A DNA stretch of 21,864 bases from a virus: IMG/VR virus record IMGVR_UViG_3300033146_002275, positions 1-21,864 of that record, one strand, 5' to 3'. A program made the translations under genes and the position numbers. This document shows, in pieces, positions 11,628-21,864 of this stretch (the stretch's first letter is position 1; every line of letters begins with the position of its first letter). The notes under the pieces are model-generated. The model was not told the origin of the DNA, made no database searches, and saw nothing but the letters and a program-made list of their open reading frames with translations.

Positions 11628-12949
11628 TTGAATGCACCTCCTGTCGTTCTTCTTAACAGCGTCATCGCATTAGCCAACGCATCTACACCTTGTTTGTGGA
11701 TAGACTTACTAGGAACCTCTTTTTGCTTTTTGTCATCATCCTCGTCAACGTCATCATATCGGTAATTCTCAATATCATCAACTAGAGAAGTGCAAGATCT
11801 GTCTATTTGTATATACTCATCTCGAAAAAAGTCTCTTAATGTATTGATTCGGTCAATCTCTTCTGACGTTTTAGATTTATCGGGTGCAACTTCCATATAA
11901 TTGTAGTTCATACTTCGGATTTCGTTTTGGACATTATGGTCTTGAAAATCTGTAATGAATCCTGCAAATCTACGACCAACCGTCCATCGTTTGATATCTT
12001 CTTCGATATCTCGTAATCTTGTCTTAGAGTTGTATATTTCGCCAAGGACGTAGACAAGTCTGTTTTTCCTATCTACAGCGAGTATTAGTAATGCTGACGG
12101 ATTATTATAGGCTCTCTTGATAGTGATGAAAGTTGGTAGGTGGAATACAGATGCTGGCATCTCTTCACAAACCACCTCATTTTCAAAGAAAGTTTCTATA
12201 ACTTTCTCACGTGGGTCAAGGAATTCGCCGCCATATTGCTGTGCAAATATCTTAGGTGGTAGTTCTTTCTTAGCTATCTCAAGTTCTTTTCTTGAAAAAG
12301 TAGGATTATCTGCTACGCCAAAGCTAAAAGACTTCCAGTCCTCAAACTCATCATTGAGACCTCTATTGTTCATGTGATACAGGAGTCCAGAACTTTTATC
12401 AGGTGTTGATGTGGCTACCATTCTACCATTCAAGTCGCCTAGTCTAGCTCTAAGTATCCTATCCCAGATATTTTTCTTGATGTGAGCCGCTTCACATAAG
12501 GTAACTTTCGTCAAGGACTCCCCAAATAGACTAGCAGGTTTTTCAGCTGTCTTAGTCTCTAACCAAGAACCCCAAGCTGTCTCGATTCGCTGACTTCCTC
12601 TTGAGCTTATCGATACTTTACATTGACTTAATAGGTTTGCACCACCAAGTTGCTTGAGGCAAGTCCTAGATAAGAACTCCACCACCCAATTAAACTCTTT
12701 TTCTGCTAATGTGTATTGTGGGCCCACCTGCCATATACGTTGCCCCGGCAATGTTAGTTGTACAAAGTCTTCAAAACCAGCAAACATACTTTTGCCCCAT
12801 CTCGCACCACCGCATATTACTAGAAATCTCTCAAATCTCTTGTGTGCTTCTAATTGTCCTGCACCTGGAGTGTATCCCGTGTGCTTAGCTAGAGCTAGTT
12901 TATAGTCTACGTAAGCTTTGCTGTAAATAAATTCGTGTGGACTAAACAT
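11624..12949 (-). CDS. terL: Terminase large subunit
   Basis: 441 residues, the length of compact large terminases. Walker A is 'GGARWGKS' at 47-54. The Walker B-like segment is 'KVTLCEAAHI' around 148-157, where Cys 152 stands at the usual Asp and the catalytic Glu 153 is kept. The coupling motif 'ATSTPD' is at 179-184. The C-terminal part has the RNase H-like nuclease outline: 'NNPSALLILAVDRKNRLVYVLGEIY' (281-306), 'GFITDFQDHN' (330-339) and 'GVDALANAM' near the end. Where the first nuclease Asp normally sits (as in 'D.G..NP.A'), I read Lys/Arg (IKRAYNNPSA). The protein would hydrolyse ATP to pump DNA into the procapsid. It overlaps the HNH gene by one base and the portal gene by four, so the packaging genes are coupled. 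The two odd residues depend on eye alignment. Confidence 0.85.
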   Translation of the reverse strand: MFSPHEFIYSKAYVDYKLALAKHTGYTPGAGQLEAHKRFERFLVICGGARWGKSMFAGFEDFVQLTLPGQRIWQVGPQYTLAEKEFNWVVEFLSRTCLKQLGGANLLSQCKVSISSRGSQRIETAWGSWLETKTAEKPASLFGESLTKVTLCEAAHIKKNIWDRILRARLGDLNGRMVATSTPDKSSGLLYHMNNRGLNDEFEDWKSFSFGVADNPTFSRKELEIAKKELPPKIFAQQYGGEFLDPREKVIETFFENEVVCEEMPASVFHLPTFITIKRAYNNPSALLILAVDRKNRLVYVLGEIYNSKTRLRDIEEDIKRWTVGRRFAGFITDFQDHNVQNEIRSMNYNYMEVAPDKSKTSEEIDRINTLRDFFRDEYIQIDRSCTSLVDDIENYRYDDVDEDDDKKQKEVPSKSIHKQGVDALANAMTLLRRTTGGAFK

Positions 12950-13536
12950 TATTTTCTACACCCCAACTTCCATATCTGATCTTTCTTTATGCTGTTACAA
13001 GTCCTACAGGCTAAGACTAAGTTGTCATATTCGTCTGTACCACCCATATTGATAGGGACTCTGTGGTCTATAGTCATGACCACCTTTTTTCCATCGGGGG
13101 TGTTCTGATTGATGTTAATACCACAATATACGCAATTAAATTTATGCTCTCTATATATGGATCTTCGTATTGAAGGAGCAATTCTACTGCGCACCCTTTT
13201 AACATTATGACTTAGGTTCTTAGCTTTGCCAAACTTACCTCTTTTCTTTTGCAAGTTAGACTCGTAGATGTATTCTGCACACCTTAGGCTATCAGGGCAT
13301 ATATTATGCATCTTATGTCCGTCAAAATAAGGGAGGTTCTTACAATACACCCCACTTCTAGGGTATATATTAGCAAAACCTGCTAGATTTCCAGCACATA
13401 GGACATCGAATCTGTCAGGTGCTTCTTTGAGGCTATACTTAATCTCTTGTAATACACAAGTATATACTAGCCGCCAGCACCATTCCTTATAGATGCACTT
13501 AGTCTTGGCTAAAACGTCTTCGACTATTTTTTTCAT
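12949..13536 (-). CDS. HNH endonuclease of the packaging module
   Basis: 195 residues. The C-terminal half holds a complete HNH/zinc motif: 'CVYC' at 135-138, 'TIDHRVP' with Asp 157/His 158, 'GGTDEYDNLVLAC' with Asn 172 and Cys 177, then 'CNSIKK' with Cys 180, Asn 181 and Lys 184/185. The N-terminal half carries further cysteines (for example at 47, 65, 80 and 86) that could form a second zinc site, and a basic linker (KFGKAKNLSHNVKRVRSRIA). It overlaps the small terminase by four bases and the large terminase by one, so it is part of the packaging operon rather than a free-standing homing gene. HNH proteins next to terminases of HK97-like phages are known to help cut packaged DNA, and that is the likely role here. 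A homing endonuclease is the alternative but fits the tight overlaps less well. Confidence 0.88.
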   Translation of the reverse strand: MKKIVEDVLAKTKCIYKEWCWRLVYTCVLQEIKYSLKEAPDRFDVLCAGNLAGFANIYPRSGVYCKNLPYFDGHKMHNICPDSLRCAEYIYESNLQKKRGKFGKAKNLSHNVKRVRSRIAPSIRRSIYREHKFNCVYCGININQNTPDGKKVVMTIDHRVPINMGGTDEYDNLVLACRTCNSIKKDQIWKLGCRK

Positions 13537-14075: not shown

Positions 14076-14104
14076 AGGATACACTTTATTTAACCTAATT
14101 GCAA
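14076..14104 (-). promoter_or_regulatory. Possible sigma-70-like promoter for the late genes
   Basis: On the minus strand TTGCAA (14099-14104) and TATCCT (14076-14081) are separated by exactly 17 bases. Each matches the consensus at four of six positions. The predicted start point falls at the edge of the palindrome, which would then act as an operator. The match is weak, and the -35 box overlaps the end of the polymerase-ligase gene. Confidence 0.3.
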
Positions 14105-17100
14105 GGGGTTTCTTTGCAAAAAACAAATATTTTTTCTAATTCCGTAAAATCAAAAGCCTTAAAGCTATCTTCCTTAGCTCCTGTCAGAGAATTATCTCTA
14201 TAGTTGGTTAAGTCCAGACCTTTGAAGATGTCCTCTGCTGTAGTCTTAGAGATGGAAGGTACTCCAAAGGCGGCTATAAATTGCCAGAGAGGTCTTCCAT
14301 AAGAATTTTTTATTTCCACTATTAATTTTTTTATCTTTCTTAGACCTATTCGTGACTTTCCAACCTTGTCGTCAGCGTTTTTTTCTGAAATCCTATACAC
14401 ATCGGATATAGAAGTTAAGCCGAGACCTTCAATAACCTTAGAACCGAGACCTTGAATTTTCATAACTTTACAGAAGTTGTCTATTCCAGCTATTATTTTT
14501 ACTCCGCATTTTTCATTTTTGCAGGATCCATAGTCTAGTAACTCTTTGCAAGATGGACAATATGCAGGAAACATGCACATACCTTCTATACTAGTCACTA
14601 CTCTACATATTGCTGGTATTATCTCTCCTGCTTTTTTAATCTCTATGACATCCCCTACTTTAAGATTTAGCTCCCTTAACCTATCAAGATTATGGACTGT
14701 TACCTTAGATATCGTAGAGCCAGTCAACTCTACAGGGGTTATCTGAGCTACAGGTGTTATATTTCCAGTTCGACCCACTTTGAAGGTAACCCCTAGCACT
14801 TCAGATATGGCTTTTTCAGTATCAAACTTGTAAGCAAACCTATCTGCAAAATACTTTGAACTCTTACCAAACATTGCAGCTTCGGGTGCATCATTCTTGA
14901 TAACCACACCATCCGTAGCATATTCAAGAGTTGCATTTTCTAGGATATCAATTTTTGACATTACATTATCAACATTACAAATTTGAAAAGCAGGTGTTTT
15001 AAATCCATATTTGAGTAACTTTATATAAGAATCTGTAAAGCTCATTTCTAAGCGTTTATTGTCATCAATATATCCGATATCATAGCTCATAAAGCTCAAA
15101 TCTCTTGAAGCCGTTATAGATGGGTCTAACTGTTTTAAACTACCTGCTACAAAATTACGAGCATTTTTATAATCCTTGCTGTATTTTTTCTTGAAGGTTT
15201 CAGTATTGATATAGAACTCACCCCTAATGTGAATCTCGTCAAATCTGGTCGGTATGGTCTGAGGTACATAACTTCTAACTTGCTCAGTTATGCAATCACC
15301 CTCTTTTCCATCTCCTCTAGTGAGAGCTAGGTCATATACACCCTTAAGGTATCTTAATTCTACTGCTACACCGTCAATTTTTGGTTCTATAATGAAACTG
15401 TTCTCTATATTTATCTTCTTGAGCCTCTTCTTTAACTTAGTGAAGTTGAACACCTTTTCCATAGATAACATCTTTGTTGTGTGCAGAATTTTGTCGAATC
15501 CCTCTTGTAGGTCACTGCCCATTACTTTTAATTCAGGGTTGATACTATTCAGTTTTTCAACTTTCGCATCATAATCTTGGTCTGATATTTTAGATTCATT
15601 GTTTTTAAAGTACTCTTTATCGTATTCTGCAATCTCTTTTGCAAGTTCAAAACCAGAAGGTTCTGGCTCTTTAGAATATCTGCTCATTATACCTCCTTCT
15701 ACATCTAGAGGTATGCCTTCCGCCCATTTAGGCATATCTACCATTAGCTTCATTAGTTTATCATGGTCTTCTTTATTCTTTACATTTGTTATAACTTCGT
15801 CATGGACGTGTAAAGCTACAGCATACCCTCTAGTCACTATATTTTTCAGTGCTTGTCTCAATATACAATTGCCTATAGCCTGTACCACATTTTCTACTAT
15901 CTTACCCCCATATATCTTTATGGGTGTATTGATGCCATAAGTCATCGCAGGGCTGTAATTCAGAGCTTTTAGCTCCTCACCCTCTTCTTTGGTTATATTA
16001 AAGTTAGGAGTCCCATCGGCATTTTTTGAGTAGGCTATCTTCCTTTTTGCTTGAGTCAGCCCTTCATTTGCTTCCTCTATGTCTTTAGAGTACCATAAAA
16101 CGCCAACATTTCTGTAGTATAGCTTACGTCCGCTAGGTAATGTCAAGTGGATGTCATCTCCTATACGTTCCATGTAGACTTTGTATAAGCTTTCCTCTTT
16201 TGTCTCACCTGATATGAGATTAGAGAAAGCTGTGTTCATATCTTTCCACATCCCACCAGTCCTAACTTGATACTTATCTTTGTATAACTTAGGCTTACCA
16301 GCCTCCCAAACTGTAGTACCTGCAACTAAGCTGTACTCATCACGGAAAGCGTTAAGTAGTTCGTAAGGTGTTTTACCTTGTAATTCAGCTCCGAAAGCAT
16401 CTAGTTGCTCTTCTAGTCTATCCTCTCCCATTTGATACCCACAACCCAATACTAGGACTTTACCTACTGTCCTCTCTGCTTTTTCGATATCTTCAATAGG
16501 TTTTTGATATATCTTGGCGGCTAAGTTCTTATAGAAGTCAACACCCTCATTATAACCTTTAATTTTAGCGTGGTCTTCTACAAGCCAGACGAGTATACGA
16601 GCTTCAATAGATGCATAATCAATTACAGAGAACTTATGACCTTCCTCTGGAACTATAGTTAGTCTAACTAAGCTAACAGCCTCCTCGATATTGTCGAGCC
16701 CTTTCCCACTAAGCAATTTGACTAGATTCTGCCAAGGGTTTTTGCTTGATGGTAAACTATGGGGTTGGAACTCTCTACCAGAATATCTCCCTGTTTGCGT
16801 CAGATTCATCTTGATTTGATTTAGGAGTCTGTCTTCAACTCTCACGTCCAAAGCTTTCTGTAGCTTAGCTAAGGAGGACTTATTCATATCTAATCTCGCC
16901 TGAATGATACTTTTATGCCTGTCTGAAAGTTCGCTATCTTGTAATTTCTCTAGGAGGTATTCTTTACTACAAGATTCCAACTCTAACTTTTCCTCTTTAG
17001 CCGCTTTCTTGAACTTTTGGGTAGATGTTAATACCTCTCTAGGAATCCCTATATCCTTAGATATTTGACTCTTTAGCTTATCTATCTCTTTTAGGAGTAG

Positions 17101-17805
17101 CTTGATAAAAGGTACATCTATTCGGATACCTTCCTTGCCAATCTTATGATTTATCAGTATAGATATGATGTCCTTTTCAGCGTTAGGCATACTACAAATA
17201 CGCTCTAGGAGTTGCACATCTTTTTGACAATATTCGTGAGACTCATCCATCTTTTTCTTCACTATAGGAAGGAAACAAGATTTTAAATCAGGTTTGCCAA
17301 GCCTAGCTAAATATGCACCTAAACTCTCGTCTAGCTCCATGTATTTCTTACCTTTAGGGCAGGCTAACTGTAACATGGCTTTTGAGCCTAACTTATCTTT
17401 TCCTAAGTTTTTATCTATGTTCTGAGCTATCGCCTCTAATGAAGCACTACGCTCCGCATAAAAACTAGCCATTAGAGGTATTGAGTCAACAGGGAGCTTA
17501 ATATCTATACCCCAAGCTCTTTTCATTAGAGCAAAGTCAAAACCATCGCCATTATGGGCTATAGTTATAGTATCAGGTCTCTCCATTATAGCTTTAAGCG
17601 TAGATATAACGCTTTTTGTATGTGGCTCAGTAGCTATATAATCAAAAGTCTGTTTTCGCTTAGTCTCAAGATTAAGAACTATAGCGTGACAATTCATTAT
17701 ATAGGTGTGTTTGCTTGCTACGTAAGCATTTCCACCTATTAGTTTGATGTTGTGTGGGCTTCGAGTCTCTAAGTCAAAATACACTAAGTTTTTGATACCC
17801 TGCAT
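14095..17805 (-). CDS. Fused family A DNA polymerase and NAD+-dependent DNA ligase
   Basis: 1236 residues in one frame. Residues 1-200 are a DnaQ-like 3'-5' proofreading domain: 'YFDLET' (Asp 11, Glu 13), 'HNGDGFDF' (Asn 85, Asp 90), 'YCQKDV' (Tyr 192, Asp 196). Residues about 325-711 are a PolA polymerase: 'TQTGRYSG' (336-343), motif A 'DYASIEAR' (396-403), motif B Arg 445/Lys 449/Tyr 457, and motif C 'HVHDE' (666-670). Residues about 718-1236 are a LigA ligase: an Ia-like segment 'ISDQDYD' (740-746), nucleotidyl-acceptor Lys 809 in 'EPKIDG', 'TRGDG' (829-833), 'RGEFYI' (861-866), 'DGVVIK' (965-970), OB fold 'VGRTGNITPVAQ' (1010-1021), zinc Cys 1083/1086/1095/1100, then helix-hairpin-helix repeats. 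A BRCT domain and a 5'-3' exonuclease are absent. The linker is only about ten residues (SKEPEPSGFE). The start has a perfect AAGGAGGT. It would copy DNA and seal nicks, probably at the phage fork. Confidence 0.93.
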   Translation of the reverse strand: MQGIKNLVYFDLETRSPHNIKLIGGNAYVASKHTYIMNCHAIVLNLETKRKQTFDYIATEPHTKSVISTLKAIMERPDTITIAHNGDGFDFALMKRAWGIDIKLPVDSIPLMASFYAERSASLEAIAQNIDKNLGKDKLGSKAMLQLACPKGKKYMELDESLGAYLARLGKPDLKSCFLPIVKKKMDESHEYCQKDVQLLERICSMPNAEKDIISILINHKIGKEGIRIDVPFIKLLLKEIDKLKSQISKDIGIPREVLTSTQKFKKAAKEEKLELESCSKEYLLEKLQDSELSDRHKSIIQARLDMNKSSLAKLQKALDVRVEDRLLNQIKMNLTQTGRYSGREFQPHSLPSSKNPWQNLVKLLSGKGLDNIEEAVSLVRLTIVPEEGHKFSVIDYASIEARILVWLVEDHAKIKGYNEGVDFYKNLAAKIYQKPIEDIEKAERTVGKVLVLGCGYQMGEDRLEEQLDAFGAELQGKTPYELLNAFRDEYSLVAGTTVWEAGKPKLYKDKYQVRTGGMWKDMNTAFSNLISGETKEESLYKVYMERIGDDIHLTLPSGRKLYYRNVGVLWYSKDIEEANEGLTQAKRKIAYSKNADGTPNFNITKEEGEELKALNYSPAMTYGINTPIKIYGGKIVENVVQAIGNCILRQALKNIVTRGYAVALHVHDEVITNVKNKEDHDKLMKLMVDMPKWAEGIPLDVEGGIMSRYSKEPEPSGFELAKEIAEYDKEYFKNNESKISDQDYDAKVEKLNSINPELKVMGSDLQEGFDKILHTTKMLSMEKVFNFTKLKKRLKKINIENSFIIEPKIDGVAVELRYLKGVYDLALTRGDGKEGDCITEQVRSYVPQTIPTRFDEIHIRGEFYINTETFKKKYSKDYKNARNFVAGSLKQLDPSITASRDLSFMSYDIGYIDDNKRLEMSFTDSYIKLLKYGFKTPAFQICNVDNVMSKIDILENATLEYATDGVVIKNDAPEAAMFGKSSKYFADRFAYKFDTEKAISEVLGVTFKVGRTGNITPVAQITPVELTGSTISKVTVHNLDRLRELNLKVGDVIEIKKAGEIIPAICRVVTSIEGMCMFPAYCPSCKELLDYGSCKNEKCGVKIIAGIDNFCKVMKIQGLGSKVIEGLGLTSISDVYRISEKNADDKVGKSRIGLRKIKKLIVEIKNSYGRPLWQFIAAFGVPSISKTTAEDIFKGLDLTNYRDNSLTGAKEDSFKAFDFTELEKIFVFCKETPCN
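15685..15698 (-). promoter_or_regulatory. Internal ribosome site and ATG at the polymerase/ligase junction
   Basis: AAGGAGGTATAATG lies inside the fusion gene and encodes part of 'VEGGIM'. The ATG is Met 707, at the end of the polymerase domain and ten residues before the ligase. Translation from here would give a 530-residue free ligase with all ligase domains. The spacing (four bases from GGAGG to ATG) is short but usable. The EGG residues are near the family's conserved 'VEG', so the match could be partly accidental. Confidence 0.5.
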
Positions 17806-17813
17806 TGAAAAAA

Positions 17814-17820
17814 CCTCCTT
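17814..17820 (-). promoter_or_regulatory. Ribosome binding site of the polymerase-ligase gene
   Basis: AAGGAGG, eight bases before the ATG at 17805. It fixes the start of the fusion gene. Its first bases directly follow the T-run of the upstream hairpin, so folding or termination there could affect access. Confidence 0.8.
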
Positions 17821-17849
17821 AAAAAGACAGTATCTTATCAGATACTGTC
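17821..17849 (-). terminator. Hairpin with T-run before the polymerase-ligase gene
   Basis: On the minus strand a 10-bp stem (GACAGTATCT) closes a GATA loop (17826-17849) and is followed at once by TTTTT, the form of an intrinsic terminator. The stem has only four GC pairs, so it may be partial. It lies in a 55-bp gap after the second nuclease gene and directly before the ribosome site of the polymerase-ligase gene. It could therefore act as an attenuator rather than an end of transcription. Confidence 0.6.
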
Positions 17850-17860
17850 CTATATGTCAA

Positions 17861-18315
17861 CTATTTTCTTTTATAATTCTCTTCATGTATCAGATTATTT
17901 AGTATTCTCATCTCTGAAGATTTAGGACAGGGAGCATCTATAATGTGAAAAACAGGGAGCAAGTTAGAATAGTTCCTCACATTGATAATACCACCAATAC
18001 GAACTTTTAAGCCGTAGGCATATATCATTAGAGATTCTATATAGTTATCAACTAAAACCTTTCCCTGTAATGCACTATACTTAATATCCCATACAGCAAG
18101 CCCCTTATTGCCATGTCTTATTTGGTCAGCTCTGCCAACATATAGGGAGTTGTCTATAGTGAACTTGAAACTTTGTTGCACGGAGTACACCCTATCGTTT
18201 TCGTAGTCTGCTACATAGCTATCATAGATGTCTTGTAAATCCTCTGGCATAACAGGGATGTTTTGCTTCCAGTGGTATTGGTTGATAGCTGAGTCTATCA
18301 GTATTCCTTTACTTC

Positions 18316-18325
<10 letters not shown>
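17861..18325 (-). CDS. Short PD-(D/E)XK nuclease-like protein
   Basis: 154 residues. The core is 'LYVGRADQIRHGNKGLAVWDIKYS' split as 'GRAD' (Asp 67) and 'WDIK' (Asp 80, Lys 82), the metal-binding layout of RecB/exonuclease-type PD-(D/E)XK enzymes. A helix follows with 'YIESLMIYAYGL' (Glu 97, Tyr 102), where RecB relatives carry the Q..xY motif. The N-terminal 'KGILIDSAINQYH' matches the 'G..xH' motif helix, but Asp 11 stands at the His position. Little precedes it, so the protein is about half the usual size. The ATG overlaps the end of the Cas4-like gene by ten bases behind GGAG. It may be a phage exonuclease or a partner of the larger nuclease. That it is active is inferred from the intact D..D.K set. 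Confidence 0.75.
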
Positions 18326-19463
<1,138 letters not shown>

Positions 19464-19464
<1 letters not shown>

Positions 19465-21140: not shown

Positions 21141-21864
21141 TTACATTATTTCTGTGAGATTAATATCGTAAACGATTTCCCAAGCTTTGGCTGGATAAGT
21201 ATTTGCATATCCAAATCTAGGGTCAGGAATACGTTTAACCTCCATTCCCAGCTCTAAAGTTATTTTCTTTAGTTTATGCCAGCTGAATTCTTTTTCACTC
21301 CGACCTAAAGTTAGAGCAACTTTTAAAATAGAAGCATATTTCTTAGTTCGACCTAATTCTGCATTAGCTTTATTTAATCTCCTAACTGCCACACTAGCTG
21401 TTGCCATTGCTGTAGCTTCTCTTCTATTACCTATTTCTGCTTTTGTAGCAATTGCAATATCTCTTTGTTTTTGAGCTTCTATTCTGTCAGCTCTGTCTGG
21501 GTCTTCTAACATATTATCAATTGTGTTTTGAGTAGCATACATTCCATGTTTTCTGATATCTGGTAATACTTCACTAAAAACCCACTTTTGGAATCTTTTA
21601 GCATTAGGTTTTATTGATTTGAATATTGCTCTATACAAACCTGATTCAGTAAGAAAAAGTTCACCAGTATTGTGTAATTTTCTTATGTCACTAAGTGTTT
21701 CATTAGAATAAGTCTTTATATCAGAGTTACTTATGAGCTTTTTTTCATATTCTTCATATCGTTGAGTATTAATTCTCAAGTTAGGTAATCCTAAAACATT
21801 TCCTACTTGATTTACATTAAAATAGAAATTGCCATCCAATTGTAATATTTCTACGTTTTTATTT
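21141..21864 (-). CDS. BRO/KilA-type phage antirepressor, 5' end cut by the window
   Basis: The frame is open from the window edge: 'NKNVEILQLDGNFYFNV' precedes the TTG at 21839 that a gene finder might choose, and this upstream part belongs to the normal Bro-N fold, so the real start is outside the window. The Bro-N signature is clear: 'LFLTESGLYRAIFKSIKPNAKRFQKWVFSEVLPDIRKHGMY', with the middle 'RFQKWVFSEVLPDIRKHG' most diagnostic. A charged helical segment follows (RADRIEAQKQRD, then KAEIGNRREATAMA). The C-terminal domain (FSWHKLKKITLELGMEV to KAWEIVYDINL) looks like a separate DNA- or protein-binding domain of antirepressors. Such proteins oppose the prophage repressor or modulate gene expression, suggesting a temperate ancestry. 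It is the first visible gene of the replication block. Confidence 0.88.
   Translation of the reverse strand, partial: NKNVEILQLDGNFYFNVNQVGNVLGLPNLRINTQRYEEYEKKLISNSDIKTYSNETLSDIRKLHNTGELFLTESGLYRAIFKSIKPNAKRFQKWVFSEVLPDIRKHGMYATQNTIDNMLEDPDRADRIEAQKQRDIAIATKAEIGNRREATAMATASVAVRRLNKANAELGRTKKYASILKVALTLGRSEKEFSWHKLKKITLELGMEVKRIPDPRFGYANTYPAKAWEIVYDINLTEIM

What the first reader, a model, noticed from the sequence alone, without database searches (positions are those of the whole stretch)
14095..17805. One-chain DNA polymerase (PolA with proofreading) fused to an NAD+ DNA ligase
Complete, well-ordered motifs of both enzymes occur in one uninterrupted 1236-codon frame: exonuclease DxE, PolA motifs A, B and C, then LigA KxDG, OB fold, zinc cysteines and HhH, joined by about ten residues. 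Polymerase and NAD+ ligase are normally separate proteins in phages, and I know of no described PolA-LigA fusion. The usual 5'-3' exonuclease of Pol I is absent and the ligase lies at the other end, so gap filling and nick sealing would be coupled in one polypeptide. RNA primers would have to be removed by another enzyme, possibly the host's or one outside the window.
Basis: partly seen in the sequence, partly recalled or inferred. Interest (0 to 1): 0.92.

Follow-up and report, generated by a model that had tools for sequence, protein, structure and literature searches.

The report
Phage DNA polymerase fused to ligase
An uncultured bacterial virus carries one unbroken gene that joins a proofreading DNA-copying enzyme to an NAD+-using DNA-sealing enzyme; a comparable polymerase-ligase fusion is known from giant algal viruses, but this combination was found nowhere else in our searches and nothing about its activity has been tested.

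Summary
Confirmed: window 14095-17805, minus strand, is one open frame of 1236 codons. Residues 1-712 are a complete Klenow-type phage family A polymerase with 3'-5' exonuclease. After a 6-residue linker (EPEPSG), residues 719-1236 are an NAD+ DNA ligase (Ia, adenylation, OB, Cys4, HhH) without BRCT and with a degenerate last HhH. Predicted structures match Klenow and LigA. The polymerase ends at its normal last residue. Between K712 and the ligase's NAD-binding residues there is no start codon in frame, so a missed stop would not give two normal genes. No other fusion was found: 0 of 50,697 phage and 0 of 72,556 plasmid records match over 80% of the protein; none among relatives fetched from IMG/VR, in 398 bacterial genomes of one phylum, or by a junction-specific pattern. 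So this is a new variant of a known kind, a singleton from one contig. The strongest ribosome-binding site in the gene lies at the junction (M707), so free ligase may also be made. Coupled gap filling and sealing is inferred.

The parts
14095..17805 (-). fused polA-ligA gene, 1236 codons, ATG start, TAG stop
17813..17821 (-). Shine-Dalgarno of the fused gene (TAAGGAGGT, 7 nt before ATG)
   Evidence: -12.0 kcal/mol
17206..17805 (-). 3'-5' exonuclease domain, residues 1-200 (D11, E13, N85, D90, Y192, D196)
   Evidence: predicted fold
15670..17205 (-). family A polymerase thumb/palm/fingers, residues 201-712; ends at the conserved Y-x-K terminus (K712 invariant in the 40-row alignment)
15691..15699 (-). 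internal Shine-Dalgarno-like site GAAGGAGGT, strongest of all 80 ATG contexts in the ORF
   Evidence: -12.8 kcal/mol; one search gives P=0.06 under synonymous-codon sampling of the same protein
15685..15687 (-). internal in-frame ATG (M707), possible start of a free ligase of 530 residues
   Evidence: inference
15652..15669 (-). linker EPEPSG, residues 713-718
15508..15651 (-). ligase domain Ia (NAD+ binding), residues 719-766: Y732, D742, Y745, D746
14818..15501 (-). ligase adenylation domain, residues 769-996, K809 nucleophile
   Evidence: PF01653
14590..14805 (-). ligase OB domain, residues 1001-1072
   Evidence: PF03120
14506..14559 (-). Cys4 zinc site C1083, C1086, C1095, C1100 (short loop)
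14206..14475 (-). HhH region, about three recognisable helix-hairpin-helix units
14098..14205 (-). C-terminal 36 residues: fourth HhH not recognisable, no BRCT domain
17861..18325 (-). neighbour: 154-aa ORF with a RecB/Cas4-like GRAD..DIK pattern (reading by eye; no family hit)
18316..19464 (-). neighbour: PD-(D/E)XK nuclease with Cys cluster and EP repeat
   Evidence: PF12705
19464..21089 (-). neighbour: superfamily 2 phage helicase
11624..12949 (-). neighbour: terminase large subunit (tailed-phage context)

Best explanation
A tailed phage makes a single 1236-residue enzyme in which its replicative-type family A polymerase (with proofreading) is covalently tethered through a six-residue Glu-Pro linker to an NAD+-dependent DNA ligase. 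The polymerase fills a gap up to the 5'-phosphate of the next fragment, and the tethered ligase, adenylated on K809 from NAD+, clamps and seals the nick it leaves, as PgVPolX does for base-excision gaps. RNA primers would be removed first by another nuclease (host Pol I or RNase H, or a phage nuclease). Shown: one open frame, complete polymerase domains, a ligase with its catalytic core complete, expected folds for each half, a junction exactly between the two. Inferred: activity, hand-off, role in lagging-strand maturation or repair, and a possible extra free ligase started at M707.
For: Frame and domains; catalytic residues; predicted folds: polymerase part pTM 0.84 with Klenow 1d8y as top match, ligase part pLDDT 84 with LigA entries as top matches; polymerase stops at its conserved Y-x-K end and the ligase starts at the start of domain Ia; equal codon usage on both sides; no in-frame start between codon 707 and 762, past the NAD-binding residues, so the full ligase can only be read from the polymerase frame; gene sits in a helicase-nuclease-polymerase module upstream of a head-gene block; precedent PgVPolX: same order, active as polymerase and NAD+ ligase, with gap filling and sealing shown to act in concert.
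Against: Singleton: no second fused copy in any search, so recurrence and purifying selection on the fused form cannot be shown. The ligase lacks BRCT, its last HhH is degenerate and one arginine common in relatives before the D965 motif is absent, so ligase efficiency is uncertain. Reads were not available. The two halves were modelled separately, so the geometry of the joined protein is unknown.
Confidence: 0.68

Rival explanations
1. Dual output: the gene makes the full fusion and, by internal initiation at M707, a free 530-residue ligase, so the fusion is partly an overlapping-gene arrangement.
For: GAAGGAGGT-ATA-ATG at the junction is the strongest SD of all 80 ATGs in the ORF, stronger than the gene's own; it lies 5 codons before the polymerase end and 14 before the ligase domain; it is the only in-frame start with an SD that gives a complete ligase without the polymerase domain. 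In phage Snoke an annotated ribosome-binding site inside the 3' end of polA starts the next gene.
Against: The conserved polymerase tail E-G-G already forces an SD-like sequence: synonymous sampling gives as strong a site in 6% of cases and at least -10 in 45%. Spacing of 3-4 nt is short.
Confidence: 0.35
2. Sequencing or assembly artefact: in the real phage polymerase and ligase are two genes and the contig joins them by error.
For: Single metagenomic contig, no second copy; the relatives' polymerases are unfused; reads not available.
Against: The polymerase and the ligase core are complete with a minimal linker, same strand, same frame, same codon usage. K712 is invariant and must be read in this frame; no start codon follows it before the NAD-binding residues, so a simple missed stop would leave the ligase without its Ia domain.
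Confidence: 0.12
3. The ligase half is a degenerating passenger that serves as DNA-binding or NAD-sensing appendage rather than sealing nicks.
For: BRCT missing, last HhH degenerate, TIGR00575 score 368 below its cut-off of 444; solo Nlig-Ia proteins proposed as NAD+ sensors exist in phages (PMC9503650).
Against: The nucleotidyltransferase residues listed, the NAD-binding residues listed, the OB domain and Cys4 are kept, and C-terminally truncated or BRCT-deleted ligases are among the solved LigA structures matched (8ak4, 3sgi).
Confidence: 0.12

Closest known systems
PgVPolX (Phaeocystis globosa virus gene 401) and CeV_489
   Same: Virus-encoded DNA polymerase fused at its C-terminus to an NAD+-dependent DNA ligase; PgVPolX has 1093 residues; ligase and polymerase activity shown for PgVPolX (PMC5537341, PMC4669402).
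   Different: Family X repair polymerase with dRP lyase, giant viruses of algae; here family A with a 3'-5' exonuclease in a tailed phage.
Separate phage PolA (phrog_17 type, e.g. Guernseyvirinae such as Snoke and Jersey)
   Same: Exonuclease plus family A polymerase, same motifs and the same conserved C-terminus; about 25% identical over the aligned length.
   Different: The gene ends within a few codons of the polymerase domain in the relatives examined; 38 of the 39 closest records hold no ligase match.
Phage PR1 heterodimeric NAD+ ligase (PDB 9hu3, 9i5i) and T5-like LigA/LigB
   Same: Phage NAD+ ligase; the window protein matches both subunit families (phrog_3359 and phrog_3498; 9hu3_A and 9hu3_B).
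   Different: Two chains there, one chain here and attached to the polymerase.
Bacterial LigA
   Same: Ia, adenylation, OB, zinc and HhH order; best genome match 38% identical.
   Different: No BRCT, last HhH degenerate, fused to polymerase.
Bacterial LigD (NHEJ polymerase-ligase)
   Same: Polymerase and ligase in one chain for fill-in and sealing (PMC4770248 abstract).
   Different: ATP-dependent ligase and, from own knowledge, a primase-type polymerase; no sequence relation implied.

Membership tests
Family A DNA polymerase with 3'-5' exonuclease | Motifs A, B, C | tested here: met
   D396/E401, R445/K449/Y457, H668-D669-E670; all invariant or nearly so in the 40-row alignment
Family A DNA polymerase with 3'-5' exonuclease | DnaQ-like exonuclease motifs | tested here: met
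   D11/E13, N85/D90, Y192/D196
Family A DNA polymerase with 3'-5' exonuclease | Klenow fold | tested here: met
   AlphaFold pTM 0.84, top match Klenow 1d8y over 762 alignment columns
Complete cellular DNA polymerase I | N-terminal 5'-3' exonuclease | tested here: not met
   protein begins with the 3'-5' exonuclease
NAD+-dependent DNA ligase (LigA) | Ia NAD-binding residues | tested here: met
   Y732, D742, Y745, D746
NAD+-dependent DNA ligase (LigA) | Nucleotidyltransferase motifs with KxDG | tested here: met
   K809, D811, G812, R830, E863, D965, K970, K993
NAD+-dependent DNA ligase (LigA) | OB, Cys4 zinc and HhH | tested here: met
   PF03120; C1083, C1086, C1095, C1100; HhH present but the last unit degenerate
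NAD+-dependent DNA ligase (LigA) | C-terminal BRCT and curated equivalog score | tested here: not met
   BRCT absent and no remnant seen downstream by eye; TIGR00575 368 bits against cut-off 444; filed as a BRCT-less NAD+ ligase domain, not a full LigA
Viral PolX-NAD+ ligase fusion (PgVPolX type) | Polymerase N-terminal, NAD+ ligase C-terminal in one chain | tested here: met
Viral PolX-NAD+ ligase fusion (PgVPolX type) | Family X (Pol beta-like) core | tested here: not met
   the polymerase is family A
Viral PolX-NAD+ ligase fusion (PgVPolX type) | Polymerase and ligase activity in concert | not testable with these tools
   needs biochemistry
LigD | ATP-dependent ligase domain | tested here: not met
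   ligase is NAD+ type with Ia, OB, zinc and HhH

The most novel reading that the evidence does not exclude
A one-chain lagging-strand finishing enzyme: a proofreading family A polymerase that copies up to the next fragment and directly passes the nick to its own NAD+ ligase, with extra free ligase made by internal initiation; a phage solution independent of, and convergent with, the PolX-ligase fusion of giant viruses.
Probability: 0.35. Interest if true: 0.72.

Novelty: new variant of a known kind. Interest (0 to 1): 0.56.

Why it matters
If active, it would be the first proofreading family A polymerase joined to a ligase, and the first polymerase-NAD+ ligase fusion in a phage, that our searches could find. 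It would let one test directly whether tethering speeds the hand-off from gap filling to nick sealing, and it would suggest that polymerase-ligase fusion arose at least twice in viruses. It is also a candidate tool enzyme for gap fill and seal reactions.

Tried and rejected
Close relatives by exact peptides of the fusion: none. Fusion-specific DNA pattern (HDE ... W..G ... I.D..YD) in IMG/VR and GTDB contigs: 8 hits, none with polymerase or ligase homology by HMM, judged chance; only one of the two histidine-codon versions could be run on GTDB contigs. Fusion in bacterial genomes: P0001 on 3 genomes and on 398 genomes of one phylum (that of an Oscillospiraceae genome) gave ordinary separate LigA in the rows listed. 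Terminase-based search for sister phages: 72 distant loci, none with this polymerase or ligase in the DNA fetched. A mixed alignment for modelling the whole chain misaligned the polymerase rows and was dropped, so the halves were modelled separately. A ligase tree left the window ligase on a long, poorly supported branch, so its origin (phage or bacterial) is unresolved. Internal start as proven dual expression: rejected as proven, since the protein sequence alone gives as strong an SD in 6% of synonymous samples. Rfam: nothing; tRNA: none.

Full report
What is there. The gene is on the minus strand, ATG at 17805 to a TAG stop at 14095-14097, 1236 residues without an interruption. Its own Shine-Dalgarno, TAAGGAGGT, is strong. 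Pfam finds a family A polymerase, an NAD+ ligase adenylation domain and a ligase OB domain; PHROGs finds DNA polymerase over 6-777 and NAD-dependent ligase over 720-1202; PDB sequence search aligns residues 728-1195 with LigA. The window is a 21,864-base IMG/VR record, probably a fragment. Its other genes include a helicase, a PD-(D/E)XK nuclease, an HNH nuclease, a terminase, a portal and a weak major head protein match, so it is a tailed phage.

The halves. In a 40-row alignment of phage polymerases, the exonuclease residues D11, E13, N85 and D196, the polymerase residues D396, E401, R445, K449, H668, D669 and E670, and the last residue K712 are invariant. The ligase keeps its NAD-binding residues, KxDG lysine, the other nucleotidyltransferase residues listed and the zinc cysteines. 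It lacks BRCT, its fourth HhH is not recognisable, and it scores below the curated LigA cut-off. AlphaFold models of residues 1-761 (pTM 0.84) and 701-1236 (mean pLDDT 84) match Klenow fragment and LigA best.

The junction. The polymerase ends where its relatives end. Of 154 ORFs found by the polymerase model in the loci fetched by then, only two run more than 3 residues past the domain: the window's own and L195, a weak distant match (E 3.6e-07). Then come E-P-E-P-S-G and the ligase Ia helix. GC3 and synonymous codon usage do not change across it. The other two frames hold many stops there, and in frame there is no start codon from 708 to 761. Hence a complete ligase cannot be started downstream of the polymerase tail, and a missed stop would not give two ordinary genes. 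I did not enumerate base changes (see referred steps). Reads were not available.

A second possible product. GAAGGAGGT-ATA-ATG at M707 is the best SD of 80 ATGs in the ORF. Because the polymerase tail is E-G-G-I-M, sampling synonymous codons gives as strong a site in 6% of cases, so this is suggestive only.

Rarity. No INPHARED phage (50,697) or PLSDB plasmid (72,556) has a match covering 80% of the protein. Five homology scans of IMG/VR, one with the fusion itself (no relative found) and four with polymerase or ligase alignments, and HMM analysis of the loci fetched up to then found no other fused ORF; the fetch keeps only the best 80 per scan, so this is not exhaustive. A junction pattern scan found only chance hits. 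Of 39 records among those with the nearest polymerases, one (L242) has a ligase match, as a separate gene 2.2 kb downstream of the polymerase; several of these records are fragments.

What is known. A survey of 21,191 viral proteomes reports NAD+ ligases only in viruses above about 68 kb, and solo Nlig-Ia domains; the section on NAD+ ligases that I read mentions no polymerase fusion (PMC9503650). But PgV and CeV have DNA ligase fused to the C-terminus of PolX (PMC5537341, PMC4669402), and PgVPolX polymerises, has dRP lyase and is an NAD+-stimulated ligase. That is the closest kind. Here the polymerase family, the proofreading domain and the host group differ. The literature held is open-access only.

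Mechanism. By analogy with PgVPolX and from the anatomy, gap filling up to a 5'-phosphate followed by sealing from the same polypeptide is the most likely use. Whether this serves lagging-strand maturation or repair is not decided. Primer removal must come from elsewhere; no 5' nuclease or RNase H was recognised among the window proteins searched.

Noticed in passing
window 18493-18567 and 15659-15666: The PD-(D/E)XK gene holds a run of the hexamer CCAGAA coding an EPEP... tail; the octamer CCAGAACC occurs in the window only in this run and in the EPEP linker of the fusion. It could be a shared linker habit or a recombination trace.
   Followed up: partly
window 17861-18325 and 18316-19464: Two adjacent ORFs both look like RecB/Cas4-type nucleases (GRAD..DIK and GAMD..DLK by eye); only the second has a family hit.
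   Followed up: no
L242: A phage contig with a SNF2-like helicase, a PD-(D/E)XK-like ORF, polymerase, a cytosine-methyltransferase-like ORF and a short-Ia NAD+ ligase as separate genes (helicase, nuclease and methyltransferase read by eye): possibly what an unfused arrangement looks like.
   Followed up: partly
L194 5890-8363: On a 359,890-base contig an NAD+ ligase is followed directly by an HNH nuclease weakly similar to the window's HNH (1.2e-05).
   Followed up: no
window 21141-21863: Anti-repressor (Ant) family gene upstream of the helicase; several phages with related polymerases also carry a relative of it near polA.
   Followed up: no
window 12949-13536: HNH nuclease directly upstream of the terminase large subunit, a common arrangement in cos-packaging phages (own knowledge).
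   Followed up: no
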